In this document: in pieces, positions 12,090 through 62,860 of the stretch | Numbering within the stretch: position 1 is the first letter of the stretch | Layout: every line of letters begins with the position of its first letter | Source: Ostrinia nubilalis | Taxonomy: Eukaryota > Arthropoda > Insecta > Lepidoptera > Crambidae | DNA length: 64,000 nt | Direction: 5' to 3' | NCBI RefSeq assembly: GCF_963855985.1 | Contig: NC_087107.1 | Location: forward strand, 1,550,001-1,614,000 | Position numbers and translations under genes: made by a program | Notes under the pieces: generated by a model | Databases searched by the model: none | Told to the model about the DNA's origin: nothing | The model's input: only the letters and a program-made list of their open reading frames with translations

Positions 12090-12418
12090 TAACCGCCTCT
12101 GTGATCTAGTGGTAAGACCACCTGCTTCAGACGCAGAGGTCCCGGGTTCGATTCCCAGTGGGGGCAGATTTTTCTGTTCGGTTTGGTTGGTGATAGGGCT
12201 TGTTCTAAGTCCGCCTGGCTAGCTACCACCATCTTACCTAAGTCTGTCGCCATAACAACAATGTTAACAGCATTGTTGTGTTCCGGCAGTTAGAGGTAAG
12301 ATAGCCAGTTCCTCCGTGTTTGAGGATTCCGGGTGAAGCTCGCTTCCACCTTCGGCCTGATCGGCACTTACCATCAGGTGAGATACAGGCCAAGAGCTTC
12401 CTCGTTGTGGATAAAAAA
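12090..12418 (+). mobile_element. tRNA-derived SINE, full-length copy
   Basis: The head resembles a tRNA with A box-like TGATCTAGTGGTAAGACC and a canonical B box GGTTCGATTCC. An unrelated body and an A-rich tail follow at 12410-12420. A close copy lies in an OBP intron at 33066-33388, and 3' fragments are at 4604-4782 and 41605-41725. The tRNA-like head does not close into a standard acceptor stem, so this is not called a tRNA gene. Confidence 0.85.
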
Positions 12419-20132: not shown

Positions 20133-22047
20133 TCAGAACACTTCGTCACTCGGATCGTCATCCAACTCGCAGAGGAGTTTGCTGCTGTAAATAGAGAAAA
20201 ACTTAATTTAAATACAAATATTTGGGCATGATACAAAGATATTTTGTAATAAAAACAATAGCACATCAACCGTAACAAGTTGAACTTAAAACTGCGCTTA
20301 TTATTGATATAATAAGAGCGCTTTTGCGTTGCAACTGTTTCACTTGATGTGCCGTTCTCGTTAGCACTTATGTTACTTATTTATTAGAAATGTCACTCAA
20401 CAGATTCTGATAGTTAATATTTTTGAACTGTTGCAAACATAAGCGGTATTATTATTCAAATTAGAATTGGTGGTCTGGTTAGTTAAGAAGACCGATAGAT
20501 AGAAATTTAGAGAAAAATATACCAATTGAAAAAATTAAGCTTATTTAATAAACTACACTAAGGTTTAGTACTTTGTTCAAGAAAAGTGCTTGTTCTAATG
20601 ATGACTAGATAGTTCAGCAGTTGACATTTTAGAAATAAATCCGTGCAGTCTAATCTAGGTCTTAATGTAGTGTTTTTGAAGACTATTTTTCTACTTTACT
20701 TTCGCAATTAAAGATCAATGAAATAAGTAAGACTTAAAAAATATATTAAAGGTTAATTCCAAAAGCCAATTTGAATAGTTATTTTTATTTCAAAATTGTG
20801 AATTATAGCATCTACAACTACTATTAAATTGTAATTTAGAATTTTTAAGCGTTGAAGCCAATTTAAAATTTAGATAAAATTGTGTATAAAGTTGTTGCGA
20901 ACATAAAGTAGAAAAGGAAATTATAGTTTGACTGACGGATACAGTGATTTTACTGAAGTTTTTTGAGTCAAAAGATTGAGTACTTCACTCTTTACAGTGC
21001 ATCAACATGAAACGTACTTGTGAAGTAAATTATTCCAACAATAATAATATCCACTACGATGTTCCATCGCCAAACTTGAAATCGCTATCGGACCTGAAAG
21101 TCCAGTATTTAGAATCATCAATAAACTAAAAAGTTCTCCTTTCGCAAGCACTGACACCGATATAACTCCCAAAAAATTAAAACTGCATTGAGATGAAGAG
21201 GAAGATTTTCAGTCATCAGTGCTCGTGAAGGCTGTCAAAAACAATCACTACAGAAATTAAAAGATAAAATAGATACTTACTCCTCTTTACTCGCATACGA
21301 TTCGGCGTGAACTCGCCTATTGCATGCTCTGTCGCAGCAGCGGCAGTGCCAATAAGCGAGCACACTTAGACTGAACACGAAAACAGTCGTGGGTAGCACC
21401 AGGGCCAATATTAAGCCCCTAACTGTTGACTCCCATGAATACCTCGCGACCACCAGATCTGGCCTCGTCAGGCTATAGTAACATGGAAATATCTTCGGGG
21501 CTTTAGGCCCTGCATACTCGCTTGCGAATATAGAACAGTTCACTCTCGGTGGATATCCGCAACCCTCAGGGTTGATTAGGAATTTCAAGTCAGTTTCGTC
21601 CCATTCCTTTGGTACTTTTGCGCCTTCCTCATAAGGTCTTCTTGCTAGATTGACGCGGATCTTGTGGCATTTTGTGTGGGCAGTTGTGCAGCCCTCCCGA
21701 CATGATGCCCATGTGCAGTTGGTTAAAGTATTCGCTTGGACGTGTTCGGAAACCGCACAGATGCCAGCTTCTGGGACGAATTCTGCTAGGATGGTTTGGA
21801 TCGCGGGCTCCACGACAAAGGGTATTAAGAATAGGAAGGCGAAGACTGCGAGTATAGCTGACGTGCCGAGGCAAAGTGATGTGTAGAATTTGAATCGCTC
21901 GAAAAAGTGCGTTAGCAACTGCTCTCTGGTCGGTTCTAGTGGCTTGAACTCCGGGCTGCCTGGTTCGGCTGAAGCTCCCATGGGGAGCGTGGATCTCTCG
22001 GAGGCGGCTGGGGAGAGGCTCCCCCGGGATCTGCTCATCGAAGACAT
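20133..22047 (-). CDS. TipE-family sodium-channel auxiliary subunit (TEH1-like), two coding exons
   Basis: Predicted 272-residue membrane protein of the TipE/TEH family, auxiliary subunits that raise surface expression and tune gating of the insect Para sodium channel. Coding exons are 22047-21281 and 20184-20133. The open frame appears to stop at 21277, but a strong donor (GA|GTAAGTAT) precedes that stop. The acceptor TTTACAG at 20185 joins in phase and adds an acidic tail ending DDDPSDEVF. Topology: cytoplasmic N-terminus, membrane segment about residues 55-79, extracellular loop with NCTWASCREGC (110-120), EGCGYPPRVNCS (161-172) and FPCYYS (187-192), second membrane segment about 211-233, then a Cys-rich cytoplasmic tail. 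N-glycosylation sites are N110 and N170. The start is the first in-frame ATG after an in-frame stop. Its Kozak context is weak, and ATG at residue 4 is an alternative. The TEH1 assignment is by impression; family membership is firm. Confidence 0.88.
21000..21262 (+). pseudogene. Possible retrocopy fragment inside the TEH intron
   Basis: From ATG at 21007 the plus strand reads MKRTCEVNYSNNNN and continues 40 codons to TAA. After a frame change it reads KSSPFASTDTDITPKKLKLH, a stop, then DEEEDFQSSVLVKAVKN, and an A-rich stretch follows. The protein-like, polar composition and disabled frame suggest a processed pseudogene. I do not recognise the parent gene. It lies antisense in the intron of the TEH gene. 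Confidence 0.35.
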
Positions 22048-22131
22048 GAGGAGTTCAGCCAGTAGAAAGCATTGCAAGCGTTTAGTCGTCTCTTAGTGAA
22101 CCAGCCGGACCCTCGCAGAGGAGGGGAACGC
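22048..22131 (-). other. 5'UTR part of the TEH exon, with acceptor and uORF
   Basis: On the minus strand, TACTATTTCTCATTCCAG is an excellent acceptor ending at 22132, so the coding exon starts at 22131 and an upstream noncoding exon must exist. The leader has an in-frame TAA and a five-codon upstream ORF (22072-22055, ATG CTT TCT ACT GGC TGA) just before the main ATG at 22047. This may dampen translation. Confidence 0.6.
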
Positions 22132-22179
22132 CTGGAATGAGAAATAGTAAACGACATTACCAACAAAGTTGGTCACATA

Positions 22180-22840
22180 AAACTTAACTTAATACAGCTT
22201 GTTTGCGTGACAACAGCTCATTTAAATACCCCTATGACGTCATCTTACTGACGCTTGCTTTCTTATTATTTTTACTTTCATACACATAAAGAAATGGTTT
22301 AGGTACAGTTCACAACATGTAAATTATAGGTAAATATAATATTTAAAATTATGATTGTGTATTTGTAAATAAATAGTAACAAGTAACTTGCGATTGTTTC
22401 TACAATTGTACATTATGTCATCAGTTAAAAATAGCCAAGTAAATAATCCTGTTGGCAATCTACTCGTAAAATTATGACTTTATCAAATTGGCTAAGCACC
22501 TAGAGACAATCATGTAATCAAATTCAATTACTACAAACTGCTGTAATTACTCCACTTACTCTGTTAATAGGGTATGCATTAGTAACTAGGTTAAACTGAA
22601 TCCTAAGTAGAGTTCCTTTCGTGTGTAGGAGAGGCCTTAAAATAAAATATTCAATGTACGCAAACTCCTTCCAGTCACGACACATTTATATCAAGGACAA
22701 ACATGTTAACTGGCTTGAATTGAAATACCACTGTTTGGATTTCAAATAAGGGTAATAATTACCTGTATTTTGTTTGTATTTTTAATATATTTTATGGGCA
22801 ATAAATTATTGTTTGTTTGAAAAAAATCTTACGTGACTGA
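22180..22840. other. Spacer between the two TEH genes
   Basis: About 0.7 kb of AT-rich DNA between the acceptor of the downstream TEH gene and the stop codon of the upstream one. It has no transposon signature. It may hold the upstream gene's 3'UTR and a promoter or first exon for the downstream gene, but no clear TATA or poly(A) signal was picked out. Confidence 0.4.
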
Positions 22841-22842
22841 TC

Positions 22843-24147
22843 TCAGAGTGGAGAAACAGGATCATTTGGAGATAGCTGCATTTCAGCTTGACCGCTGGTG
22901 CAGCCCTTGAAACGCATCTTTGCGTCATCACCTACTTCCACAGTCTTTTGACACAACATCAAAGTTATACACGACACAACCACCAACACTGTGGGTAGTA
23001 CTAGAGCTACCAGAAACTGGCGATACGTGGTTTCCAGATCAAATCTGGCTACAACAGTATCTGGACTGTTTTCCATGTAGAAGCAAGGGAATCTTGCTTT
23101 GGCATTATGGTCAGCGCCATCTCGACCGTAATCTTTGAGGAACTCTTTGCATTCATCAGCTAGAGTATTGACGCAGCCTTCCAGATTGATCATTAAGCGG
23201 CTGTCATTAGCCAATGTCAATTCTACTTCTGATGGAGCGATCATTCGATTCGGTGCTGCTCGTACGGTATACAAATACTGTAGGTACGTGAAATTGGTCA
23301 AATCTGTCAGCTCAGTTCTTGGCAACAAAGCAGCGTTTATGCAATCAACAGCCACAACACCCGACGTGCCATTATGCACAGCATGACAGGAAATCATTAG
23401 CACTTCTTCACCAGAATCGTTCCACACTATCACACCGCCTTCTTCTTGAGCTAGTTTTGCACATTTTGCGAGAAAAACCCTGTCACCACTGAGCACTATG
23501 ACGTTTTTGTTGCGGGTCGGGATGTCGACGCAGCGGCGATCGCAGTTGTACGGCGTTCGTATTTTTCTACAAGTTCCTCTGTTACACGAGAACAATCCAT
23601 GAACGTCTATACAAGTTATCTTCCCTCTTCTCCCAGAACATTTCAAGGGCGGATCTGTTTCTCTGAATGCGCATTCAAAAGCGTCTGTTATGTTGATGCA
23701 CTTTCCTTCTGTACAGTTGAACGTTCCTGTCAAATTTTTGCATTCATCTCGAATGCAGTGATACTTCCTGGCGTTTTCTTGGTCGATGCCGTAGCAAGTT
23801 TTGTTGGCTGCACTGCCGCATTCTGACAGGAGTAAAGACGTGCCGTTCTTTCTGACGTTGACATAGATTTGGATGCAGGCTCCCGATGTCTTGCTGAGGC
23901 ACCATTCTCCACACGATCCCCAGTCGCAGTTGTCTTTGTTGACGGCCCTTGTTGTGGTGCACATGATCGGTGTGGGGTCAATCCCGGAAGCGATGGCTCT
24001 TGTGTAAGGCATGTAAATAGCTACTGTTAGATAGACGATCGCGACAGCGCTGAGCACTGCTGTCATTTGGCAGACGCATATTGTCCCGCATATCTTTTGG
24101 TCTTGTGGTGGTATTATCAGGTCCTCCACGGGCGTCGGTTTCGGCAT
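22843..24147 (-). CDS. TipE/TEH-family subunit with cysteine-rich extracellular repeats
   Basis: Predicted 434-residue, two-pass membrane protein of the same family as its neighbour, in one coding exon. The start chosen is the first Met (24147; ACAACATGCC is a good Kozak context). The frame stays open about 200 nt further upstream without an ATG. Membrane segments lie near residues 20-46 and 386-409. The loop keeps family marks: NCDWGSCGEWC (73-83), NLEGCVN (331-337) and ARFPCFYMENSPDTVVARF (361-379). Between about residues 128 and 216 it carries an insert of repeated units of the form C-x-(N/D)-x-x-(G/A)-x-F-x-C with GxC partners (KNLTGTFNC, INITDAFEC, IDVHGLFSC, RKIRTPYNC), EGF-like in spacing. 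Several NxS/T sites are present. Which TEH paralogue it is cannot be fixed by eye. Confidence 0.85.
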   Translation of the reverse strand: MPKPTPVEDLIIPPQDQKICGTICVCQMTAVLSAVAIVYLTVAIYMPYTRAIASGIDPTPIMCTTTRAVNKDNCDWGSCGEWCLSKTSGACIQIYVNVRKNGTSLLLSECGSAANKTCYGIDQENARKYHCIRDECKNLTGTFNCTEGKCINITDAFECAFRETDPPLKCSGRRGKITCIDVHGLFSCNRGTCRKIRTPYNCDRRCVDIPTRNKNVIVLSGDRVFLAKCAKLAQEEGGVIVWNDSGEEVLMISCHAVHNGTSGVVAVDCINAALLPRTELTDLTNFTYLQYLYTVRAAPNRMIAPSEVELTLANDSRLMINLEGCVNTLADECKEFLKDYGRDGADHNAKARFPCFYMENSPDTVVARFDLETTYRQFLVALVLPTVLVVVSCITLMLCQKTVEVGDDAKMRFKGCTSGQAEMQLSPNDPVSPL

Positions 24148-25011
24148 GTTGTACCCTCGGTACCCCGGTCGCGTAGCCACTGGCTCGGGTGTAGCGGCGT
24201 GCGCCTGCGTGGCGCTGCAATCGATACGGCGCAGTGCGGGCAACCCCGCTTGTGCTATTTTTTTAATACACCCCGATGTCAACGTCCTGACGTCGAACAA
24301 TAATAACGGACCGTATGGAATGACATTAGAAATTAATTGTATGAGTTTGTTTAAACGATAATGCAGTTGACAATATTAATCACTTTAGACACTAGAATAA
24401 TTTTAAATTCTTGCTAGAATTGATATGAACACGACCTTTGTCGTGTGAAACAAGCGATAAATAATTCGGTTACTAATGCAGTATACACAAAAATTATCTC
24501 AGTGTATGTAATTGATAACAAACATTGAGCTGGACGAGAACTATAAATTACACCTACTGTACAGTCAACATTAACGTCAAATCATATTTGCTTACAACAA
24601 TGATTATAATATAAAAAAATATGGGGAACCACAAACCCTAAACAAAAGAAAATCTATTTCGTTTAAGCATTTTAGACTAGATTTTATTACCTTTATTTAT
24701 ATTTTAAATGTCAAAATTTTTTTCAAGGAGTTTAGTAAGCTAGTACATACTTGTTTTTACTTTTTTTATTATGTATTTTGTGCATGTCTCTCATTATGTT
24801 ATTATAATAAAAAATAAAGGACAATGCAACCGATTATTTCATACAAATAAAATTTTGACATGCCAAAACACATAAGTAAAAAAATTCAGTATTTTCCCTA
24901 TCTCCGCAAAAAATACGTTTATGAAAATACCTACCTATTCTAGACACGATACAATTAGACCATACATTTTAATTTATGCCGTACAGTGACGTATAAGGAC
25001 TAGTGACTTAC

Positions 25012-31556: not shown

Positions 31557-34500
31557 ATGAAGACCTTAGTCGTGCTCGTTGTCTGCTTCGTTGTGGCCCA
31601 GGTGAGTTTTATCACTATCAATATAGCCATCTGTTCTGCCCTTTATAGACTTTTGCGTTGGTTTTTTGTCTGCTATAGAGTTACTCGTAAAAATCATTGG
31701 TGTTTATCAAGATAGGATAAGGGATAGGTCTTCCCTTTACAGCCTTTTGGGTTAATCTTTATGTTTGCAATAAAGTTATAATTAAAAATTTTGCTGAGCA
31801 TCGGTTCTGTGGGCATTTAAACAGGTTCATTGTAAAGAATATTCACATTAATAGTGTCCCTTGCCAGGTGTTTTGTTTGTATTTTAATTTGCTATAATAC
31901 TCATACCTAGAATTTAAATTTTTGAACCTTAGAACTCACTGAAAAGCAATTAACCCTAGAGTGAGCTCGTCTTTTTTCGTAACGCCAGTGGGCTTGTGGG
32001 GAGCATTTTGCCGCTCCTTTGTACAGCAATTATGTTTCGGCAATATAGACTTCACATAGGTGTGTGCAGTGCAATGTTCATATTTTATGTTCAGAAATAG
32101 ACTTCCTATGTCTGAAATGATGATGATGATGAAGTAAATAAAATCTTAAATAATGTCACAAGATCTGTTATTTTTTTATTTTTCCATATAATCACGTGAT
32201 ACTTTTAAATTCTTTGATTTAAATATTTTTTTAGCCTTTACAATAAATAAAAAAATAAATACACTACAAAGTAAGGTCTAATTTATGAGACAAATTTTTA
32301 CTTACATGAGTGGGCGTACGGTGAGAAAATTGCCGCGTGGCGTAACCTGACGGTAAGAAACTCATCCTCAAAAGGCCATTCATGCACTGATTGTTGATGC
32401 AATTGTTTAATGATAAATGTAAATGTTATTTTTTATGTTTTTGCAACGCCTTCACTGGGTGTCTCATGTGCAAAATTATGCTCTACCAACCCTTACCCAT
32501 GTGAGATGCAATAAATAATTTGAATTTAATGACGTTAAGCTTTTCAGAATGAGTTAGGAACGAACGCAGGGGCAGCTACCAAAAGCTCACACTTAGAGGG
32601 CAATTTATTGCTTTACGAATTATTAACACTTTTTTGCAAAGGGCGGCAAAATGCTCATAGCGCGCGCACTCTAGGGCTAACCTACTTACTACTACTACCT
32701 AATCAGCCACTCTACTTTTACAAAATAAAGTAATTAATTACAGAACTAACACAAAATTACTGTCGCTAGCTCGATTATTAATTTCATTGATTGTAATTGC
32801 GGATTAATACCACCAGAACTTAAATGTCCGGAGCTCATTTTAACCTAAACTTGAAATAAAATAAATTGAATTTAAATGTAACTTGACATTATTATTTTAT
32901 TCAGTCCTTCACCGATGAGCAAAAGGAGAAGCTGAAGAAGCACAAGTCAGAATGTCTGTCGGAGACGAAGGTGGAAGAGGCGTTGGTGAACAAGGTGAAG
33001 ACTGGTGATTACAAGGTACGACAATATTACAGACGCGCACATTTTCTGTAACTGTAAGTCTAGGCGCTGTGGTCTAGTAGTAAGACCACCTGCTTCAGAC
33101 GCAGAGGTCCCGGGTTCGATTCCCAGTGGGGGCAGATTTTTCTGTTCGGTTTGGTAGGTGATAGGGCTTGTTCTAAGTCCGCCTGGCAAGCTACCACCAT
33201 CTTACCTAAGTCTGTCGCAATAACAACAATGTTAACAGCATTATTGTGTTCCGGCAGTTAGAGGTAAGATAGCCAGTTCCTCCGTGGTTGAGGATTCCGG
33301 GTGAAGCTCGCTTCCACCTTAGGCCTGATCATTACTTACCATTAGGTGAGATACAGGCCAAGAGCTTCCTCGTTGTGCATAAAAAAAAGACCATCGTTTT
33401 TTTGTTGGCCGATAGTTGGGCCCGATTTTAATTTGTATGAAGAATCACCCAAATCAAATCGGTGTAATGTGCGCACTTCCATACATGCCCATACTGATCA
33501 ACTGCCCGACTAAACTATGGGCCGACGAATTGATGGTCTGCGCATAGGCTAAAAACCTGTTTCTATAATATTAGTCTCTGTTCGCGTATGATAGAGTGTA
33601 CTTATGCTTGCGGCTTACACAGTTTTCGTATAGGTACTGCTTTAATTCCTTCTATAACGATAGAAATTGAAACGTAAGAAAATACATTTAGGTAAGTAAC
33701 TCTTTAATGGTGGTTGGATTCAGGCCACTGCCAATCGGCCAATTTGGAGATTACTGGGGGATGCCTGTGGCTGATATGATGATGATGAACACTGTTTGTT
33801 GCAGACCGAAAACGATGCCCTGAAGAAGTACGCCCTCTGCATGATGATCAAGTCGGAGCTGATGACCAAGGAGGGCAAGTTCAAGAAGGACGTCGCTCTG
33901 GCTAAAGTTCCTAACCCAGGTATGTATTTATCTAATACTTTAAGGGCTCGTTCCTACGGCAATCCAGTTTTGCATGATGCATTAAAGCAGGATCTCGCAA
34001 AACTTGACTGTTGTGTGAAAACACATTATGTGTGTTTGAAATTCGAATTACAAGTTCGAAGGGATCGGGACGTCTCCATACGTTGGCCTCAACGTTGGTC
34101 ACACGGCACTCGTCCAATGTGTGGAATTAGAAAATAGCTTGTTCCAAAGTGCCAATAGCTTTGTATTAATGTAATTTCACTACCCTGTAAAGCATTTGGT
34201 CCACTACATTCGATACGAATACGATTCGACATCAGAGCTTGATGATGATACAACTCTAAATCTTAGTAGCATAAGGCTCAATATCTTTGAACATACTTTG
34301 AATATGATCATGATACGATAATGATTGTCATATTGTGGCTCGTAATCGATGCAAAGCACAATCGCCATTTTTATCCTGTTAGATAAACAATTTAACAGTT
34401 GAATGTTGCAGACATGATCTTTTTTTCACTTCGTTATCAAGGAAAAAACAAGCAAAATAGGTACCTATTTTAAAGTAAATTATTATGAACCCAAAAATGT

Positions 34501-36234
34501 TTGGTAACACTTATTTTTTATTTTGCAACTGGTATCTTAAGTCATTGACTGCCAAGACACTAGACACATTGTTCGAAGTTCACTAGTAAGGCGCACGGCG
34601 TCCAACGTATTAACTAAGAGAATCATTGAAAAATTGAATTTAATATTATTCATCATCATCATCATCATTTCAGCCATAGGACGTCCACTGCTGAACATAG
34701 GCCTCCCCCAATGCTTTCCATGTTGATCGATTGGTAGCGGCCTGCGTCCAGCGCTTCCCTGCTACCTTTACGATGTCGTCGGTCCACCTTGTAGGTGGAC
34801 GTCCCACGCTGCGTTTTCCGGTACGCGGCCTCCATTCCAGAACCTTTCTGCCCCATCGGCCATCAGTTCTGCGTACTATGTGCCCTGCCCATTGCCACTT
34901 CAGTTTGCTAATCCGTCGGGCTATGTCAGCGACTTTGGTTCGTTTACGGATCTCCTCATTTCTGATTCGATCTCGCAAAGAAACACCAAGCATAGCCCTC
35001 TCCATAGCACGCTGTGCAACTTTGAGCTTCTGTATAAGGCCTATAGTGAGAGGCCACGTTTCCGAGCCATAAGTTATCACTGGTAACACACATTGGTTAT
35101 ACACTCTAGTCTTCAGGCATTGAGGTAATTTGGACGAAGAGATGTTGCGTAGTTTCCCGAACGCTGCCCAGCCGAGTTGGATTCGACGATTGACCTCCTT
35201 CTCGAAATTGGACCTACCTAGCTGGATCGTTTGTCCGAGGTAGACATACTTGTCGACAATCTCGAGAATTGAGCTCCCAACTGAAACTGGGTAGGGCGTA
35301 ACATGGACATTCGACATAAGCTTCGTTTTGTCCATGTTCATCCTCAGGCCTACCTGTTGGGAAACTCGATTAAGGTCTTCGAGCATTGTGCCAAGATCTT
35401 CCAACGATTCTGCCATGACCACAATATCGTCGGCAAACCGAAGGTGAGTGATGTACTCGCCATTAATGTTTATGCCGAATCCTTTCCATTCCAGGAGTTT
35501 GAAAGCGTCTTCCAATGCAGCGGTGAACAGTTTCGGAGATATAACATCTCCCTGCCTAACGCCTCGCTGCAGTGGAATCGCCCTCGTGCTCTGCTCCTGT
35601 ACTCGGACCGACATGGTGGCGTTTTTGTACAAGCACTTCAGTACCTCGATATACCGATAGTCAATACGGCACCGCTGGAGAGATTGTAACACTGCCCAAG
35701 TCTCAATCGAATCGAAGGCCTTCTCATAGTCCACGAACGCCAAGCATAGTGGCAAGTTATACTCCTCAGTCTTCTGTATAACCTGCCGCAGCGTATGGAT
35801 GTGGTCTATGGTACTATAGCCTTTTCGGAATCCGGCTTGTTCGGGAGGCTGGAAGTCATCGAACCTACGCGCGAGACGGTTCGTGATGACTCTCGAAAAC
35901 AGTTTGTAGACATGACTCAGAAGCGAGATGGGTCTGTAATTCTTCAGCAAGGTCTTATCACCTTTCTTGAAGAAGAGCACCACCACGCTTCTGTTCCATG
36001 CCTCTGGCGTAGTTCCCTGGAGTAGGACAACAACAACGGGTTCGTCGTTCAACATTAATATTATTGAATGTCAATAACTCACGTACAAAATTGTCCACAG
36101 CTGACAAGCCAGCGGTAGAGAAGGTGATCGACGCCTGCCTAGCCAACAAAGGGAACACCCCCCACCAGACAGCCTGGAACTACGTCAAGTGCTACTACGA
36201 AAAGGACCCCAAACACGCCATTTTGACCCAATAA
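31557..36234 (+). CDS. Odorant-binding protein, minus-C type, four exons
   Basis: Predicted 134-residue secreted carrier of small hydrophobic ligands (PBP/GOBP fold). Coding exons: 31557-31601, 32905-33015, 33805-33919 and 36101-36234, all with GT/AG ends and phases 0,0,1. Exon 1 encodes the signal peptide MKTLVVLVVCFVVAQ. Mature residues begin SFTDEQKEKLKKHKSEC. Cysteines of the mature protein are at 32, 64, 103 and 121 (spacings 31, 38, 17), so C2 and C5 of classic six-Cys OBPs are absent; this is the minus-C class. The C-terminus WNYVKCYYEKDPK is typical. AATAAA at 36639-36644 is a likely poly(A) signal. Intron 1 has an RTE tail (32089-32135), intron 2 a SINE within a MITE, and intron 3 a 1.4-kb RTE copy. 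Ligand and tissue are unknown; minus-C OBPs also serve outside antennae. Confidence 0.93.
32089..32135 (+). repeat. RTE LINE 3' tail in OBP intron 1
   Basis: AGACTTCCTATGTCTGAAATG followed by (ATG)n. It is the last 40 bp of an RTE element in the sense orientation of the gene. Confidence 0.6.
33059..33553. mobile_element. MITE (GCGCAGACC family) interrupted by a SINE
   Basis: The right part (33388-33553) starts AGACCATCG, has GTTGGCCGATAGTTGGGCCCG, and ends TGATGGTCTGCGCATAGGC. The other copy at 37050-37229 shares this layout. Its missing left tip TCTAGGCGC lies at 33059-33067, just before the SINE (33066-33388). This implies that the SINE inserted within the MITE's left inverted repeat. Confidence 0.6.
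33066..33388 (+). mobile_element. tRNA-derived SINE in OBP intron 2
   Basis: Near-identical to 12090-12418: GTGGTCTAGTAGTAAGACC (A-box region), GGTTCGATTCC (B box), a body with GTTCCGGCAGTTAGAGGTAA and an A tail. It is in the sense orientation of the OBP gene and starts 50 bp after the exon 2 donor. Confidence 0.85.
33745..33790 (+). repeat. RTE LINE 3' tail in OBP intron 2
   Basis: GGGGGATGCCTGTGGCTGATATGATGATGATG, just upstream of the exon 3 acceptor. Confidence 0.5.
34651..36054 (-). mobile_element. 5'-truncated RTE-clade LINE in OBP intron 3, with 11-bp TSD
   Basis: The minus strand encodes the C-terminal about 460 residues of a reverse transcriptase, open to its stop at 34670. It has LAFVDYEKAFDSIE (motif A), RGVRQGDVISPKLF (motif B), HLRFADDIVVM (catalytic FADD), then the RTE-like tail RWTDDIVKVAGKRW and AYVQQWTSYG. 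The 3' end is CTATGGCTGAA(ATG)n. TTAATATTATT occurs at 34640-34650 and 36055-36065 as the target duplication. The endonuclease domain is lost by 5' truncation. It lies antisense to the OBP gene. The long open frame implies a young insertion. Confidence 0.92.
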
Positions 36235-38206: not shown

Positions 38207-39581
38207 ATGAAGCTTGCTGCGGTAGTTTTATTTACTGTGTTTACTCATACTCAGGTAAGACGTTTTAGAATTTAGCAAAGGCTTTTGAAGACAGTGGCCT
38301 AAGTCGTAAAGTTGGCCTATTACGAGAACTGATTAATACCAATTTGGAAAACAGTTCTTCAGTAGAGGACTATGTAAACAGCAAAAAAAGCTTAATATGA
38401 AGACTTTATATTTTATAGTAAAATATATGAGAACATTCTGTCAACGCGACAAGGACGAGAGTGCCCATAGACAATATTAGTAAGGAGTTTCTCTTATGCG
38501 TCCATAAATCCAACAGATCTAGTATCGCTCGTTTCAGCCAAATGACTTCCACTGCTGGACAAAGGCCTCCCCCAAGGATTTCGACAACGACCGGTCCTGC
38601 GCCACCCGTATCCAGGCACCTCTCGCGACCTTTACCAGATCATCGGTCCACTTAGTGGGGGGCCTGACCACACTACGTTTTCCGATGGTGTGGTCGTTAC
38701 TCGCGAATTGATTTATTACGTGCCAAGTGTTATATTATAGGGAATGCATCACATTTGGTTAATGCATTACTTCCAAAACACCTTGACAGGTTTCAGATCA
38801 GATTGTTTTGTATTTTGAATTCGATTTCAAAGAAATTAATTAATTTCTAGTGTCTGAGTGATGAACAAAAGGAACTGCTGAAGAAATGGCACATGGAGTG
38901 TTTTGAAGAAACGAAAGTGAGCCCTGACCTGGTGTTGAAGCTGAAGACTGGGGATTGGCGAGTAAGTTGAACACAAGTTTAATAAAATCCTCTTTCATTA
39001 ACAAAACAAATGACGGCTTAAAATATTGATAAACCGTTCACTAGATAAAATCAATGAATTTTACAATCTGAAAAGCGATGACAGTGGAACTGGGACAATG
39101 CAAAGGCATCTGACATGGGCTTGGGTTCTCAAAACCAAGTCGTTGCCAAAATAAAAGAAGAAGACATGGGTTTGATTTAGGCACCTCAATATGATGCTTG
39201 GTTGATTTAAGTTCAAGTCGTAATGTAGACTGGAGGCATCATTGGGTGTGTCACTCCTAAAAATCCTCCTTCAATCCAAGAGTTTCACCTCCATAGCACT
39301 GTCCAGTGTCCATAGAGAAATTAGTGATGGAAGACAATTTTGTTTTGTTTGAGCGGCGAAAACGTTCAAGAATAAGGTTCATCCTTGGTAAAAGTTATAA
39401 TTCAGTGCCATAGAGATCTAGACTTCTAGAGAGATGAGAAGTATCAGTACTCAACGTGCGAATAATCTTTAATATACGCAAGCAATGTAAACTGTTTATA
39501 CTTAAAACCTCAACTTGGCACATTGCTGTCGCGAGCAATGTGTTCTGTTTTGGGCAAATTGCTGCGACACTGCCTCCTATC

Positions 39582-39617
<36 letters not shown>

Positions 39618-42600
39618 ACTGGCTAAGCCCCCTTTTCATATCTCCCTTTAGTTTTTGTGATCTGTGTTCAGTGCTATACGTTACACTGCACGATGTCCAC
39701 TAAAAACCTTTTCCAAATAGTCCATCAATTCTTTCTGCTTAGCGATAATTTTAAATCTTATTAATTTCCAGCTTGATAACAAACTTCTGAAAAAATGGAC
39801 GCTGTGTATCTTGAGGAAATACGACCTGATGAGCGATGAAGGGGTGTTCCGTCTCGACAACGCTCTTGCAATGGTGCCTGATAGAGGTTTGTGAATATAA
39901 ACGTCTTTGATGGGTTTATGGAAGGGCATTTAGGGCAGGCTTAACTGGTGTCGTTTTTGAACCATGTTCATGGGGTTTCATTAAAAGTTTTGAACAGCTC
40001 TCAGATTTTGAAAAGACGGAAATAATCTAAAAGTTCGGGATTATATTTTAAGAAAAGTTTCAAATTTTCTTGAACTGTACTACGTAATAATTTATGTATA
40101 GCATTGGTTTACTTGCCCTTACTGCCCTCCATAAATCTATCCTAAAAGTATTGAATTTTGTGACTAAAATCTCTACATTACACAAGATCTTCGCTTTCTA
40201 TTTTGCTCTCAGAAACTTCAGCTAGTTTCTTTATCTATTAATTCTAGATTTGCTTCAAAACAAAACAGACTATGTTAGTAAAATTCTTTTAAGCTTCAAC
40301 CACACCAACGCGTGCAGATCGCCCTCGCCGGCGCGATCAAAGGCCTATGACAAGTCGTGACCTCTCATTTCCATATGATCGCGCCGTGATCGCGCCGGCT
40401 ATGGCGATCTGAACGCATTGGTGTGGTTGAAGCTTTACTATCACTAGAATACTCTCTTCCTCACTAAACACAATCATATACAAGGTTATTTTTTGTATAT
40501 ACGAAAGCCGAAAAACGTGTCACGTATTTTAATCTTTAGAATCAGTATAAAAAAATGATACCTTAAAAACTCACGAAGTTCCAAGCTTTATTTGTTGTCC
40601 CATTATCCGCACGCAAGTGTAGACATCGTACAGCGCGCGGCACTTTCGTTGTTGACAACGCAATGTTTGTTAAGCTTTGACAACATTTTCCATACGCGCA
40701 GAACATTTTAGTAAGTTGTCCGTAAATTATGGATTTGTATATATTATTTAGTCAAAATGTAACATGATATAAAAAATATTGCGATGCATTCTATTACTGA
40801 TTCTGAACAAATAGTTTTAAGGTTTCGTATATTTATACTAAAAATAACCTTGTATAACTTGTGCCAAAAAGCTGGGAATGGCTACTTACAATTTTCATTT
40901 TCTTCATTTTCCTGTAAATTAGCACAAGCACTTCAATTTCAGTTACTAAACCTCTAAACTCGCACGTGAGAGTGAAGAGAAATAAGAATAAAAACAAGAA
41001 AGGCAAGAAGGGCAAGAAGGGCGACGACGACGATAAGGACAAAGATGAAACGATTTGGATTGTGTTGTTCATAGCTTCCTTTTTCGTTTTGATTTAATAT
41101 TTTAAGGCCCGATTCGACCAAACTTGTATCCGAGAATAAGTCCTGCCCCCCTAGACAAAACGCACTTTTTGATCGAATCGAAAATCGAATCCGTCAAAAC
41201 TCCATACAAAAAAGGGGCTTTTCGACCACTTTTCGACTGGTTTGCGATTATAATTTGCACTTTGTCTAGACCCACTGGTATAACTGGCACATTGACAGTT
41301 TCAGTTTGGGAATTATGTCAAAATGACAAGTTTATTCTTAGATTAAAATGACTCTTGTTTGGTCGAATCCACCCTAAAATGGATAGTAAGCTCTAAAAAG
41401 TGAAGCACTACAAACTAGAGCACTGGATAGTTTTCGCATACATTTCAACAGTTGACAAAGTCGAACACCATTGAATTCTTAGATAATAACACCAAAATGT
41501 CTTCATTCTTCATACAAGTACCTCGTCTAAAGTGAGACCAAAATCATTAATGTTATCCAATGTCATTTTACGTACGTTTTCACTTTAAACCACGGGCTTA
41601 TTTTGAAGTTTTTTTATCCACAACGAGGAAGCTCTTGGCCTGTATCTCACCTGATGGTAAGTGATGATCAGGCCGAAGATGGAAGCGAGTTTCACTCGGA
41701 ATCCTCAACCACGGAGGAACTCACTTTTCTTGCGCTTACTATCCATGGATCGGCTTGCTTTGGATATGCATCTAGGCTTGAAAACGTGTGTAAGGTGACA
41801 TAATATTTTTTGCCATACTTTAGGTAAACCTCTTGTTGTATGAAAACTATCCATCTCCATCTAGATGTTATCAATCTAAGTTTAATACTTCTTAGGTCAA
41901 GTGTTAAATTAAGTATGTAGAAGACATTTCTTTAGAGCCTATCCACTTCAAGCACTTCTATTTCAGCATCTGAATCTCCAAATGTGGGTATCAAGAGAGG
42001 AATTGTAGATGACGAAGAACTGAAGAATTATGAAGAAAACGATGAACTTGGCATGGCAATTTTTTTATTGTCTTTTGCCATTTTTTATAATTAACTCCAT
42101 GCAAATGACAAAAAACTATCATAATTAAAGTAATAAGGGATTTAATTGTTACAGTATTAATTTGGAACTGTTTTTCTTCACGACATATTTTGATGAATCC
42201 ATGAAAATTTATTCACATCTACTTTAATGCCATTGTGATGTTTGTTTTACACTTTTAAAAGTTCTGTTGTAGTCTTATTTAATACTACTTATAATCATCT
42301 TTTTATTGCAACCTCTACCACAGTTTACTAATAATTTTTCGACTATAATAATATTTTTTAGAAATTTTGTGTTTCTATTTCTATTTTATTTGTCTTGTTA
42401 CTTGTTTCTGTAATATAATTTTACTTATAAATTTAAATAATCGCTATATTATTATTATGTAAATTATTTATGTATTGTTACAATATTTTCACACTTGTAC
42501 TCATACTTACTAAGTAAAATAGTATTGTAAATTACTAAAGTGTATAAAGTTGAAAACTGTGATTTAATGAGTTAACGAGTAATAATAATTTACTGCTAAA

Positions 42601-43339
42601 CTTATTTATTTTATTGGCTAAATTATTACTTTTTACAGTCTAAGACAATGACTTTTTTATTTTGTCTCGTCCCTTAAATTTCAGTGACGAATTCAAGCTT
42701 TGAAAATAAATACAAGAGAGAAATGATGAGTTTAAGTGAAAAAAGGAAGAAATGGCTAAAATTTTTACTGTTGCGGTTGTTACTCCTATAAAATTACACA
42801 ACATATTTTGTAACAAAAGATGGCCAGTTTCGAATAGGTATTAAATAATTTATTGGTATAAAATAATTTATTGGATAGTTACTTTTATATAAAGTAAAAT
42901 TAAATATTGTTTAAAATTTTCTGCAGTGCGATTAAATTCGTCATCTTTAAAGATATTTAATAGCTAAAATAAGACATAAAATTCTAAATCTTGGACACGA
43001 ATAATAACATTTTATCTTGGACACGAATGATATTACTGTTTAGTGTTTATCTTATTTGCAACAAATGGTAGAGTCTGAAGCACTATAGACAAAAACCTCA
43101 ATGTTACAAATAAATATTACCTATTCCATTATTTCTTTGAATTACACGAGTTACTATAAATCTGCACGTTTTTTATTTCAGACAAGGAAATGATCGAAGA
43201 CTTCATAGACGAGTGCTTGCCGAAGAAAGCCAGCGCCCCCTACGAGATCGCTTGGGACTACACTAAGTGCTACCACACTATGGCCAAAAAACCTAAAAAC
43301 AAGGACAAAAGATTGCATTACCTCAACATTTTTTACTAA
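38207..43339 (+). CDS. Odorant-binding protein, minus-C type, canonical secreted isoform
   Basis: Predicted 143-residue OBP, tandem paralogue of the gene at 31557-36234. Coding exons: 38207-38254, 38851-38961, 39772-39886 and 43182-43339. Exons 2 and 3 have the same lengths (111, 115 nt) and phases as the paralogue. Exon 1 encodes the signal peptide MKLAAVVLFTVFTHTQ. Conserved cysteines are at 33, 65, 103 and 121 (spacings 31, 37, 17), with C2 and C5 missing. An extra Cys is at 17, the first mature residue. The C-terminus is longer and basic (KKPKNKDKR), ending YLNIFY. AATAAA at about 43365 is the likely poly(A) signal. Intron 3 is 3.3 kb and contains three alternative terminal-exon candidates (40943-41097, 41967-42094, 42685-42791). 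Intron 1 holds an RTE fragment, and intron 2 a 30-A tract. Confidence 0.92.
38537..38700 (-). repeat. RTE-like LINE 3' fragment in intron 1
   Basis: Reverse-orientation text GTTTCAGCCAAATGACTTCC, ACTGCTGGACAAAGGCCTCCC and CGGTCCACTTAGTGG belongs to the same subfamily as 59470-59712, whose tail is GAAACGAACGAAC rather than (ATG)n. Confidence 0.65.
39555..39616 (+). repeat. SINE tail with about 30 A residues in intron 2
   Basis: GCCTCCTATCACAT followed by an uninterrupted A run at about 39587-39616. The same phrase GCCTCCTGTCACAT(A)n is at 50626-50650 and, reversed, near 55097. This suggests the 3' terminus of a SINE family. Confidence 0.5.
40292..40434. mobile_element. Palindromic MITE, Harbinger-like, TTA target duplication
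   Basis: Arms AGCTTCAACCACACCAACGC...CAGATCGCC and the reverse complement at the right end pair over about 33 bp. TTA flanks both sides (40289-40291, 40435-40437). It lies in intron 3 of the second OBP gene. Confidence 0.75.
40481..40852. mobile_element. 372-bp MITE with CAAGGTTATTTTT ends, TA target duplication
   Basis: Terminal inverted repeats CAAGGTTATTTTT (40481) and AAAAATAACCTTG (to 40852) extend imperfectly through TATATACGAAA. TA flanks both ends, as for Tc1/mariner-type elements. There is no coding. It ends 90 bp before the first alternative terminal exon. Confidence 0.75.
40943..41097 (+). CDS. Alternative terminal exon A of the second OBP gene: Lys/Asp linker plus hydrophobic tail
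   Basis: Acceptor CTTCAATTTCAG at 40942. Exon 3 ends with one base (G), and joining here keeps frame for 51 residues to TAA at 41095: VTKPLNSHVRVKRNKNK, GKKGKKGDDDDKDKDE, then TIWIVLFIASFFVLI-stop. The charged spacer followed by about 15 hydrophobic residues at the extreme C-terminus resembles a GPI-anchor signal or tail anchor. The full isoform would be 142 residues and would lack the last two OBP cysteines. Exon B at 41967 shares the acceptor neighbourhood, which indicates duplication. ATTAAA at 41342-41347, inside a MITE, could serve as poly(A) signal. Use is inferred from sequence only. Confidence 0.6.
41102..41377. mobile_element. MITE with GATTCGACCAAAC inverted ends
   Basis: Left arm AAGGCCCGATTCGACCAAAC, right arm GTTTGGTCGAATCCACCCT; the inner 13 bp are perfect. 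It begins 5 bp after the stop codon of alternative exon A, so it would form most of that isoform's 3'UTR. Confidence 0.65.
41605..41725 (-). mobile_element. SINE 3' part in OBP intron 3
   Basis: T run, then CCACAACGAGGAAGCTCTTGG, TATCTCACCTGATGGTAAGTGA and ACCACGGAGGAACT, a reversed copy of the 12090-12418 SINE without its tRNA head. It has split an older imperfect palindrome: GGATAGT and GTTTTCGCATACA on the left, and TGTATGAAAACTATCC on the right. Confidence 0.75.
41967..42094 (+). CDS. Alternative terminal exon B of the second OBP gene: acidic linker plus hydrophobic tail
   Basis: Acceptor CAAGCACTTCTATTTCAG at 41966 matches the exon A acceptor at 17 of 18 positions, and similarity continues into the first coding bases. 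It joins exon 3 in frame for 42 residues: ASESPNVGIKRGIVDDEEL, KNYEENDELG, then MAIFLLSFAIFYN-stop. The isoform would be 133 residues. The layout is the same as exon A (charged spacer, short hydrophobic end) with a different sequence, as expected for diverged duplicates. ATTAAA near 42124 could act as poly(A) signal. Confidence 0.6.
42685..42791 (+). CDS. Alternative terminal exon C candidate of the second OBP gene
   Basis: Acceptor CCCTTAAATTTCAG at 42684. It joins exon 3 in frame for 35 residues: VTNSSFENKYKREMMSLSEK, then RKKWLKFLLLRLLLL-stop. Again a charged segment with a hydrophobic, Leu-rich end. It is weaker than A and B: shorter, in AT-rich DNA, and without visible nucleotide similarity to the other two. 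ATTAAA at 42840-42845 is a possible poly(A) signal. Confidence 0.4.
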
Positions 43340-60570: not shown

Positions 60571-62860
60571 AAGAAAGAAAGAAAGAAAAAATGTTTATTC
60601 AGTATCATCGACAATACACTTGCAATACTTAACATTATTTAATGAGAAGGTAATTACAATGATACTGAAAAGGTATCCACTCAGCATGGTGTCGTAGCAT
60701 CTCAGTAGATAATGCCACGACGCTGGTCTTCCGTGGACACCCAAACAGGGAGAGCACTACTGAGCACAACAATTGCTTATGAATCATGATACATAATAAT
60801 ATAAATACCTCATAAATACGTTACATATTGTACACCTTATATATAACTCTTTACATAATTATAAGAAAGTTGGCACACAGTTACCATAACAACCATAGCA
60901 ATACATGTTACTGATGAAACGTGGAACTTGAAGTGAGTGTATTTTAATTTACATTAATTTCAGTTTGCTGTCCTATAATGAGTCTTTTTGCAAATTTAAA
61001 AGGAAACCTTTGTATTTATATTTAAAAGAAAACAATGAGAAACATTTTTTAAGGGGTGGAGGGATGTTGTTCCAACATTTCGTGGCTGAGTATCGAAAAC
61101 TTCCACGAAATGCAGCTGTACTGTGGCTAGGACAACATAGAAGAGAAGCAGTTCTGATACGATTAGAAAATAACAATTTGTCATATAAATATGAGGGCGA
61201 TTTATTTTGAATTACACCAAATAAAAGACATGCATAATGCAGTGAACGTCGAGATTGCATATTAATTAAATTATTGTGATTTAGAAACGGAGTAATATGA
61301 GACCTGGGAGGAATGGTAAAACAAAATCGTGCACACGAATTTTGAACTCTCTGTATTAACTTTTTGGTATAACCAGAGGCACTCGCCCATAACAGTATCA
61401 GCATAATTTAGTTTTGATAATATAAGCGCTTCACAAAGCTTAATTCTTATATTAACATCCAAGAACATTCTAATCTTATATAACACGCTAAGCCTGTAGT
61501 AACAATTTCTTACTATTTCCAAGACATGGTTATGAAACCGTAGCCTATTATCCATGAGAACTCCTAAGTTGCGGGCTTCAGTTACTTTCTCGACATCTGT
61601 GTCTCCTATCTTAATTGCAGGATTTAACTTTTCTATGCTGCTAATCTGAGTCGCAGAACCCAGCACGAGAAACTTAGATTTAAGCGGGTTCAGAACTAAA
61701 CCATTTCTATTTGCCCATTTGTCAATCCGCTCTAAATCTTCATTGATTTTATTGACAGCAGTTAAGGTTTCACTAGGCTTGAATTGGAGATAAATTTGCA
61801 AATCATCTGCATACAAATGATAATTACAGTCTTTGATAGAACCAATCAAATCAGTGCTATATAAAATAAATAAAATTGGGCCCAATATGGATCCCTGCGG
61901 TACTCCACGACTTATTGGGGATGGCTTCGAACAAGAGCTAGTACCATCCACACCAACCACCTCCACCCTCTGCGATCGTCCATCAAGATAGCTGGCAAAC
62001 CATCTAAGTGACCAACTGTCAAACCCATAAAATGACAATTTAGACAGTAAAAGATTGTGGTTTATAGTGTCAAACGCCCGCGAAAAATCAAGAAGGGTTA
62101 GTATAGATCCGTGTCCTATATCCTGTCCTGCTAAAATATCATCTACTACATCCAATAAGGCCGTGGCTGTGCTTCGACCGGCACGAAATCCAGACTGTTT
62201 AGAGGGCAAGATGTTGTTTGCATTCAAATAATCAGTTAACTGCTGACAGACTACTTTCTCAATTATTTTGGACAAAAAAGGGAGGATACTGATCGGTCTA
62301 AGGTCTTTTAGTTCGCTTGGGGTGGTGGTTTTTGGTATAGGCTTGACAAGAGCCTCCTTCCAGATATCAGGAAAAATGCCAGTTCGAATAGACATATTGA
62401 TCATTGTAGTGATTACTTTGAGTGTCCTTGGCATCGTTAAGATGATCATATCGCGGGAGATCCCGTCGACACCCATTGCATTAGTTGATATACTAGTGAC
62501 TATTTTTAATATGTATGATTCATCAACTGTGTGAAGGCTGAATGAAGAGGAACCAAACCGATGGTATTCAAAATATGTAAGATCCGAAATGGTGGCGTTA
62601 TCATTACCAGGTACCAGGAGAAAATGCCTATTGATAATATCTGGGTCGCTAATGTGAGAAGGTATTACAGATTGTTTACTTTTAAAGTCCACAATATTTC
62701 TTTTAATATTATTCCAAAGCAACTTGGGATCCTTAGTGTGCTGGTTAATATTTTTGCGGAAAAATCCTGCCTTTTCGCTGTACATGGCCTTATTTACAAT
62801 TGATTTCAACACTTCTGAATTATTTGTTAACTTTTCTTTTTTTCTATCACTTTTTCATCT
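60571..62860 (-). mobile_element. 5'-truncated LINE of the Jockey/CR1-like group, frameshifted
   Basis: The minus strand encodes a non-LTR reverse transcriptase without its endonuclease. From about 62812 it has SELKDLRPISILPFLSKIIE, SGFRAGRSTATALLDVVDD, LLDFSRAFDTINHNLL (motif A), SRGVPQGSILGPILF (motif B), YHLYADDLQIY (catalytic YADD) and LNYADTV. A frameshift near 61390 moves the C-terminal domain (SGYTKKLIQRVQNSCARFC to KGFLLNLQKDSL) into another frame, which ends at 60973. The 3'UTR and a (TTTC)n tail, seen as (GAAA)n at 60571-60590, complete it. A related 3' end lies at 28611-28930. Dead copy; clade assignment is tentative. Confidence 0.88.

What the first reader, a model, noticed from the sequence alone, without database searches (positions are those of the whole stretch)
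39887..43181. OBP intron 3 carries up to three in-frame alternative terminal exons with hydrophobic C-termini
Seen: after exon 3 (ends at 39886 in phase 1), acceptors at 40942, 41966 and 42684 each open a frame that fits that phase and runs 51, 42 and 35 residues to a stop. All three encode a charged linker and end in a hydrophobic stretch (TIWIVLFIASFFVLI, MAIFLLSFAIFYN, KFLLLRLLLL). The canonical last exon at 43182 also fits. A and B share a near-identical 18-nt acceptor context, so they look like exon duplicates. Known: OBPs are normally soluble and secreted. Inference: one gene may make a soluble OBP and several short isoforms anchored by GPI or a tail segment, with helices 5-6 and the last two cysteines replaced. 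I know of no described OBP with this arrangement.
Basis: partly seen in the sequence, partly recalled or inferred. Interest (0 to 1): 0.88.

Follow-up and report, generated by a model that had tools for sequence, protein, structure and literature searches.

The report
Moth OBP with candidate membrane-tail exons
A corn-borer moth odorant-binding-protein gene holds, inside its last intron, three open frames that fit its splice phase, and at least two of them are likely alternative last exons that would swap the end of the soluble carrier for a hydrophobic, possibly membrane-anchoring tail, though no transcript could be examined here.

Summary
A Minus-C odorant-binding-protein (OBP) gene of an Ostrinia moth (protein identical to O. 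nubilalis LOC135081813) has a 3.3-kb intron 3 with three phase-1 tails: A 40943-41097 (51 aa), B 41967-42094 (42 aa), C 42685-42791 (35 aa). With an acceptor filter they are the only hydrophobic-ended frames on the intron's + strand; other phases give none, and 0 of 1000 simulated introns hold three. A and B share a 34-nt block (0 of 500 controls). The tails would replace helices 5-6 and cysteines 103 and 121. A and B end in 15 uncharged residues, as GPI signals do; C ends in 4 and is doubtful. Against: no protein found carries a tail, although public annotation lists an isoform of the sister OBP; codon use supports neither B nor C, and A only through its repeat linker; the shared 'acceptor' block is also open frame. 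I favour real alternative last exons for A and B (0.4), level with non-function (0.4). Expression, anchoring and conservation are untested.

The parts
38207..38254 (+). OBP exon 1, signal peptide (MKLAAVVLFTVFTHTQ; signal function inferred, no predictor run)
   Evidence: identical to start of P0001; donor 11.6 bits
38851..38961 (+). OBP exon 2, holds C33 (first conserved Cys)
39772..39886 (+). OBP exon 3, holds C65, ends in phase 1 after residue 91; donor GAG|GTTTGT is the weakest of the six OBP donors scored (6.0 bits)
40925..40958 (+). 34-nt block shared with 41949-41982 (79%), spans acceptor and start of exon A
40943..41097 (+). candidate alternative last exon A: 51-aa tail with RVKR, Lys/Gly/Asp linker (9-nt tandem repeat 40995-41022), 15 uncharged residues to stop
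41949..41982 (+). 34-nt block shared with exon A region
41967..42094 (+). candidate alternative last exon B: 42-aa tail with IKR, acidic linker, 15 uncharged residues to stop; ATTAAA 30 nt after stop
42685..42791 (+). doubtful candidate last exon C: 35-aa tail, hydrophobic end broken by charges; ATTAAA 49 nt after stop
43182..43339 (+). canonical last exon D: helix 90-103 (from residue 92) and helix 111-126, C103 and C121; AATAAA 28 nt after stop
   Evidence: conserved in P0002, P0028, P0043

Best explanation
Intron 3 of this Minus-C OBP gene holds two related, phase-compatible open frames, A and B, that are likely alternative last exons, each of which would replace the C-terminal third of the OBP with a charged linker and a 15-residue uncharged hydrophobic end predicted to act as a GPI-attachment or membrane-tail signal. 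Mechanism, step by step. Shown: exon 3 ends in phase 1 at a poor donor; A, B and C have plausible acceptors and open frames in that phase; A and B share a 34-nt block; two of the four conserved cysteines, helix 6 and nearly all of helix 5 lie only in exon D. Inferred: the slow donor lets the splicing machinery choose between the nearer terminal exons (B with a poly(A) hexamer close by, A without) and the distal exon D; the short forms enter the secretory pathway through the shared signal peptide; the hydrophobic end is exchanged for GPI or holds the protein in the membrane; the dibasic site before the linker (RVKR in A, IKR in B, YKR in C) could let a proprotein convertase release the OBP part. 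C is more likely a chance frame or a decayed copy.
For: Phase, frames and ends. Three hydrophobic-ended frames with good acceptors on the + strand, all in the right phase; 0 of 78 segment-phase controls and 0 of 1000 simulated introns have three. A-B relatedness, 0 of 500 controls, in frame. Acceptors A and C score in the top 4.7% and B in the top 1.5% of + strand AGs of the window, above the verified acceptors of exon 2 (14.6%) and of the sister gene's last exon (17.9%) (matrix from memory). ATTAAA 30 nt after the stop of B and 49 nt after that of C, against 28 nt for AATAAA in D; background about 1 hexamer per 236 nt. Codon score of A in the top 2% of 300 background tails, and frame-specific (but see against). 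Exon D alone carries C103, C121 and helix 111-126. No second strong match to any tail in the window.
Against: No isoform with a tail among the proteins found: all 42 homologues have the canonical end, and so has the extra one, P0043. The O. nubilalis name carries no 'isoform' label (the second source's name is cut short in the output), whereas the O. furnacalis sister OBP does, and its extra exon is found in this window, so that annotation does report OBP isoforms. B and C have background codon scores, and A without its repeat linker scores -0.01. Tail amino-acid alignments are not significant. Among 351 pairs of ATTTCAG sites in the window 9, A/B included, match by the criterion used, A/B being one of the weakest; the other 8 are probably repeat copies, so short duplications are common here. 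Nearest poly(A) hexamer after A is 245 nt away, and a 279-nt inverted-repeat stretch starts 4 nt after A's stop. The 15 best phase-1 frames listed for the sister gene's intron 3 include no A- or B-like tail. The truncated half-OBP would probably not form the usual pocket (inference).
Confidence: 0.4

Rival explanations
1. The tails are non-functional: chance open frames in an AT-rich intron plus a small local duplication (A/B), and the gene makes only the canonical soluble OBP.
For: No tail isoform among the proteins found; codon scores of B and C at background, A's score due to its repeat-bearing linker; other hydrophobic-ended frames exist in the intron if the acceptor filter is loose; eight other pairs of ATTTCAG sites in the window match as well as A/B; inverted-repeat stretches, which look like transposon remnants, suggest that this intron takes up foreign DNA.
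Against: Excess of acceptor-preceded, right-phase, hydrophobic-ended frames over window and simulated controls; the A/B block straddles an acceptor and continues in frame.
Confidence: 0.4
2. A and B are last exons of a different gene, nested in the intron or dead, or are entered from elsewhere (for B an upstream AG at 41936 in phase 0, which fits the exon 2 donor), and are not joined to OBP exon 3.
For: The 18-nt A/B block is open in the tail's own frame (S-T-S-I-S) with one synonymous change; the B frame opens right after TTTCTTTAG at 41936. One ATG frame with a hydrophobic start at 41840 has a weak phase-1 donor (exon end 41912, 4.1 bits).
Against: That is the only one of the 7 hydrophobic-start frames listed in 39887-42680 that has a donor above 4 bits; the CAG acceptor of A (6.5 bits) beats A's upstream AG (2.6 bits) (B's upstream AG was scored one base off and is not usable); the search with isoform A found no homologue of its tail.
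Confidence: 0.15

Closest known systems
Alternatively spliced OBP genes DponObp6 and DponObp7 of Dendroctonus ponderosae (PMC6720082, passages read)
   Same: One OBP gene, a Minus-C one in the case of DponObp7, yields two proteins by exchange of a terminal exon.
   Different: There the exchanged exon is N-terminal and encodes the signal peptide, and transcripts support it; here it would be C-terminal, would remove part of the fold, and has no transcript support.
Minus-C OBPs of Lepidoptera (ten in Bombyx, PMC2722677 passages; Chilo suppressalis OBP5, P0028)
   Same: Canonical isoform: PBP/GOBP domain, cysteines at the C1, C3, C4 and C6 places, OBP fold.
   Different: None of the 42 homologues has a hydrophobic tail.
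Secreted/GPI-anchored isoform pairs made by alternative last exons (recalled class, no call)
   Same: Choice of last exon would decide between a soluble and a hydrophobic-tailed form.
   Different: Not shown here; the anchored form would also lose a third of its domain.

Membership tests
Minus-C OBP (canonical isoform, exon D) | PBP/GOBP domain | tested here: met
   PF01395 E 6.4e-20, 71.8 bits against cut-off 22
Minus-C OBP (canonical isoform, exon D) | C2 and C5 missing, four conserved cysteines | tested here: met
   C33, C65, C103, C121 invariant in 33 sequences; an extra C17 is the first residue of exon 2
Minus-C OBP (canonical isoform, exon D) | Helical OBP fold | tested here: met
   AlphaFold2 pLDDT 85.8; five PDB matches with E <= 0.001, all bee pheromone-binding protein entries, E 2.1e-4 to 7.0e-4, TMt 0.73-0.76
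OBP fold, tail isoforms A-C | Helices 5-6 and both conserved C-terminal cysteines | tested here: not met
   Residue 92 onward is replaced; helix 111-126, nearly all of helix 90-103, C103 and C121 are in exon D only
GPI-anchored protein, tails A and B | Uncharged hydrophobic C-terminal run of about 12-20 residues to the stop (rule recalled) | tested here: met
   15 residues in A and in B
GPI-anchored protein, tail C | Uncharged hydrophobic C-terminal run of about 12-20 residues to the stop (rule recalled) | tested here: not met
   4 residues
GPI-anchored protein, tails | Omega site and spacer by a trained predictor | not testable with these tools
   No GPI predictor here; A's spacer is unusually acidic
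Alternative last exon | Acceptor and phase-compatible frame with stop | tested here: met
   A, B and C
Alternative last exon | Poly(A) signal near the stop | tested here: inconclusive
   ATTAAA at 30 nt (B) and 49 nt (C), first hexamer at 245 nt for A; hexamers only
Alternative last exon | Spliced transcripts | not testable with these tools
   No RNA data; no annotated isoform found
Alternative last exon | Conservation of the exon in relatives | not testable with these tools
   No moth genomic DNA reached; the genome search gave no answer

The most novel reading that the evidence does not exclude
One odorant-binding-protein gene makes both a soluble carrier and surface-tethered half-carriers through a small array of duplicated, fast-diverging last exons, each with a convertase site and a membrane tail: an OBP that can be anchored at, and shed from, a cell surface.
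Probability: 0.2. Interest if true: 0.82.

Novelty: new variant of a known kind. Interest (0 to 1): 0.5.

Why it matters
OBPs are treated as soluble carriers, and in the passages I read OBP alternative splicing is documented only for signal-peptide exons (PMC6720082). A membrane-tailed form would give a direct handle on how ligand or carrier is held near receptor membranes, or point to non-olfactory roles. The claim is cheap to test with corn-borer RNA data.

Tried and rejected
Sister OBP (31557-36234): phase-1 frames of 20 aa or more in its intron 3 were ranked by terminal hydrophobicity and the best 15 printed; none resembles A or B, and the most hydrophobic-ended is a 23-aa frame inside the reverse-transcriptase element.

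Homology of C to A or B: unproven. Amino-acid homology of the tails: not significant. The 34-nt block alone supports A-B.

Codon evidence for A: first looked good, then traced to the repeat-bearing linker.

First chance test of the A/B block among 27 ATTTCAG sites: 9 of 351 pairs matched by the criterion, A/B among them; some of the other 8 match well beyond the block and look like repeat copies. So a duplication is in itself no proof of an exon.

Nested gene: one weak first-exon candidate. Viral-contig scan for P0001: 2 loci with short matches, not followed. Phage scan of exon A: no match, uninformative.

Literature: ten searches, of which I saw the listings (partly capped) and opened six papers in part: PMC6720082, PMC2722677, PMC4463852, PMC9645227 and PMC9960318 (passages only) and PMC12734357 (abstract, passages, reference list). 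None of what I saw reports an OBP with an alternative C-terminal hydrophobic exon. [quoted passage not shown] furnacalis diapause (title seen only). PMC4463852 found a single Minus-C OBP in O. furnacalis antennae and compared contigs all against all because splice variants tended to split genes.
Full report
What the window is. The canonical protein spliced from this window is identical to O. nubilalis LOC135081813 (P0001, 143 aa). The sister OBP differs from the O. furnacalis entry P0010 at one residue of the signal peptide, apart from that entry's 14 extra residues, so the window comes from an Ostrinia moth, not certainly O. nubilalis. Two Minus-C OBP genes lie in tandem: the sister at 31557-36234 and the gene of interest at 38207-43339.

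The gene. Exons of 48, 111, 115 and 158 nt; introns in phase 0, 0 and 1. Pfam PBP_GOBP E 6.4e-20. AlphaFold2 on 33 sequences gives pLDDT 85.8 with helices 20-37, 41-48, 57-69, 81-85, 90-103, 111-126 and 136-139; Foldseek places it with bee pheromone-binding proteins. The relatives closest in sequence are P0002 (Loxostege, 79%), P0028 (Chilo OBP5, 61%) and P0043 (Achroia, 50%): all Pyraloidea (Loxostege; Chilo and Achroia recalled).

The tails. All three fit phase 1 after exon 3. A: VTKPLNSHVRVKR + Lys/Gly/Asp linker + TIWIVLFIASFFVLI. B: ASESPNVGIKR + acidic linker + LGMAIFLLSFAIFYN. C: VTNSSFENKYKR + linker + WLKFLLLRLLLL. A and B both end in 15 uncharged residues, C in 4. All three have a Lys-Arg pair within positions 10 to 13; with such Lys-rich tails this may be chance and was not tested.

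Chance. See the observation check: the excess is clear for the set, but thresholds were chosen after the fact, the background is one 64-kb window, and the matrices are from memory. The phase specificity is the strongest single result: 3 of 3 + strand hits are in the one phase that fits exon 3. A and B being related, they count as less than two independent cases for phase.

A and B. The 34-nt shared block covers 18 nt up to the acceptor AG and 16 nt after it. Both halves are open in the tail frame: T-S-T-S-I-S-V-T-K-P-L-N in A and S-S-T-S-I-S-A-S-E-S-P-N in B. So the block may be kept as acceptor, as coding sequence, or simply be young. The first 18 nt differ at 1 place, the next 16 at 6. A and C share a 19-nt stretch at 84% across the acceptor, but the regional alignment is not significant.

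Signals. Donor of exon 3 is GAG|GTTTGT, 6.0 bits against 7.6-13.1 for the five other OBP donors. Acceptors of A (6.5), B (7.9) and C (6.5) are weaker than D (9.8). Poly(A) hexamers: B 30 nt, C 49 nt, A 245 nt, D 28 nt after the stop.

Annotation and homologues. Isoform A as query found 2 proteins of 22 candidates, both canonical. The mixed alignment found 42 of 1159 candidates, all with the canonical end. The ortholog alignment found 4 of 382 candidates, again canonical. A tail isoform annotated in Ostrinia shares 91 residues with the query and should have been found. That a name without 'isoform' means a single product is recalled knowledge. The sister gene is an instructive control: its O. 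furnacalis 'isoform X1' has 14 extra residues, and that 42-nt exon is present here at 32311-32352 followed by GTAAGA. So OBP isoforms are reported there, and their absence here counts against the tails.

Codons. A scores 0.231 in frame (0.034 and -0.013 off frame), top 2% of 300 background tails; B and C lie near the middle (52% and 64% of background tails score as high or higher). Without its repeat-bearing linker A falls to -0.01, while held-out exon D scores 0.299.

Judgement. Real last exons for at least A and B: about 0.4; non-functional: about 0.4; other gene: about 0.15. If real, a soluble-versus-tailed choice is the natural reading, since a signal peptide plus an uncharged hydrophobic C-terminus without a cytosolic part is the GPI pattern (recalled rule). 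The ten literature searches showed no such OBP; they cover open-licence papers only and most hits were seen as listings.

Noticed in passing
32311-32352: A 42-nt cassette exon (WAYGEKIAAWRNLT) in intron 1 of the sister OBP, present in the O. furnacalis 'isoform X1' (P0010); its acceptor would be a non-YAG one (CATGAG|TGG).
   Followed up: partly
41101-41379: 279-nt inverted-repeat stretch beginning 4 nt after the stop of exon A; looks like a small transposon.
   Followed up: no
40291-40435 and 40477-40856: Two further inverted-repeat stretches in intron 3 upstream of exon A.
   Followed up: no
34670-36070 and 61271-62854: Reverse transcriptase frames (RVT_1) on the - strand; the first sits in intron 3 of the sister OBP.
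   Followed up: partly
21277-24375: Two TipE-like sodium-channel auxiliary subunit frames in tandem on the - strand; the second only just passes the family cut-off.
   Followed up: partly
12095-12166: tRNA-Leu (cag) predicted by ARAGORN.
   Followed up: no
41936: An AG in phase 0 opens the B frame ten codons earlier and would fit the exon 2 donor, which would give a form skipping exon 3.
   Followed up: partly
P0014 and P0039: Moth-like OBP proteins filed under Klebsiella pneumoniae and Halopseudomonas pelagia on contigs of at most 827 and 421 bases; likely insect contamination of bacterial assemblies.
   Followed up: no
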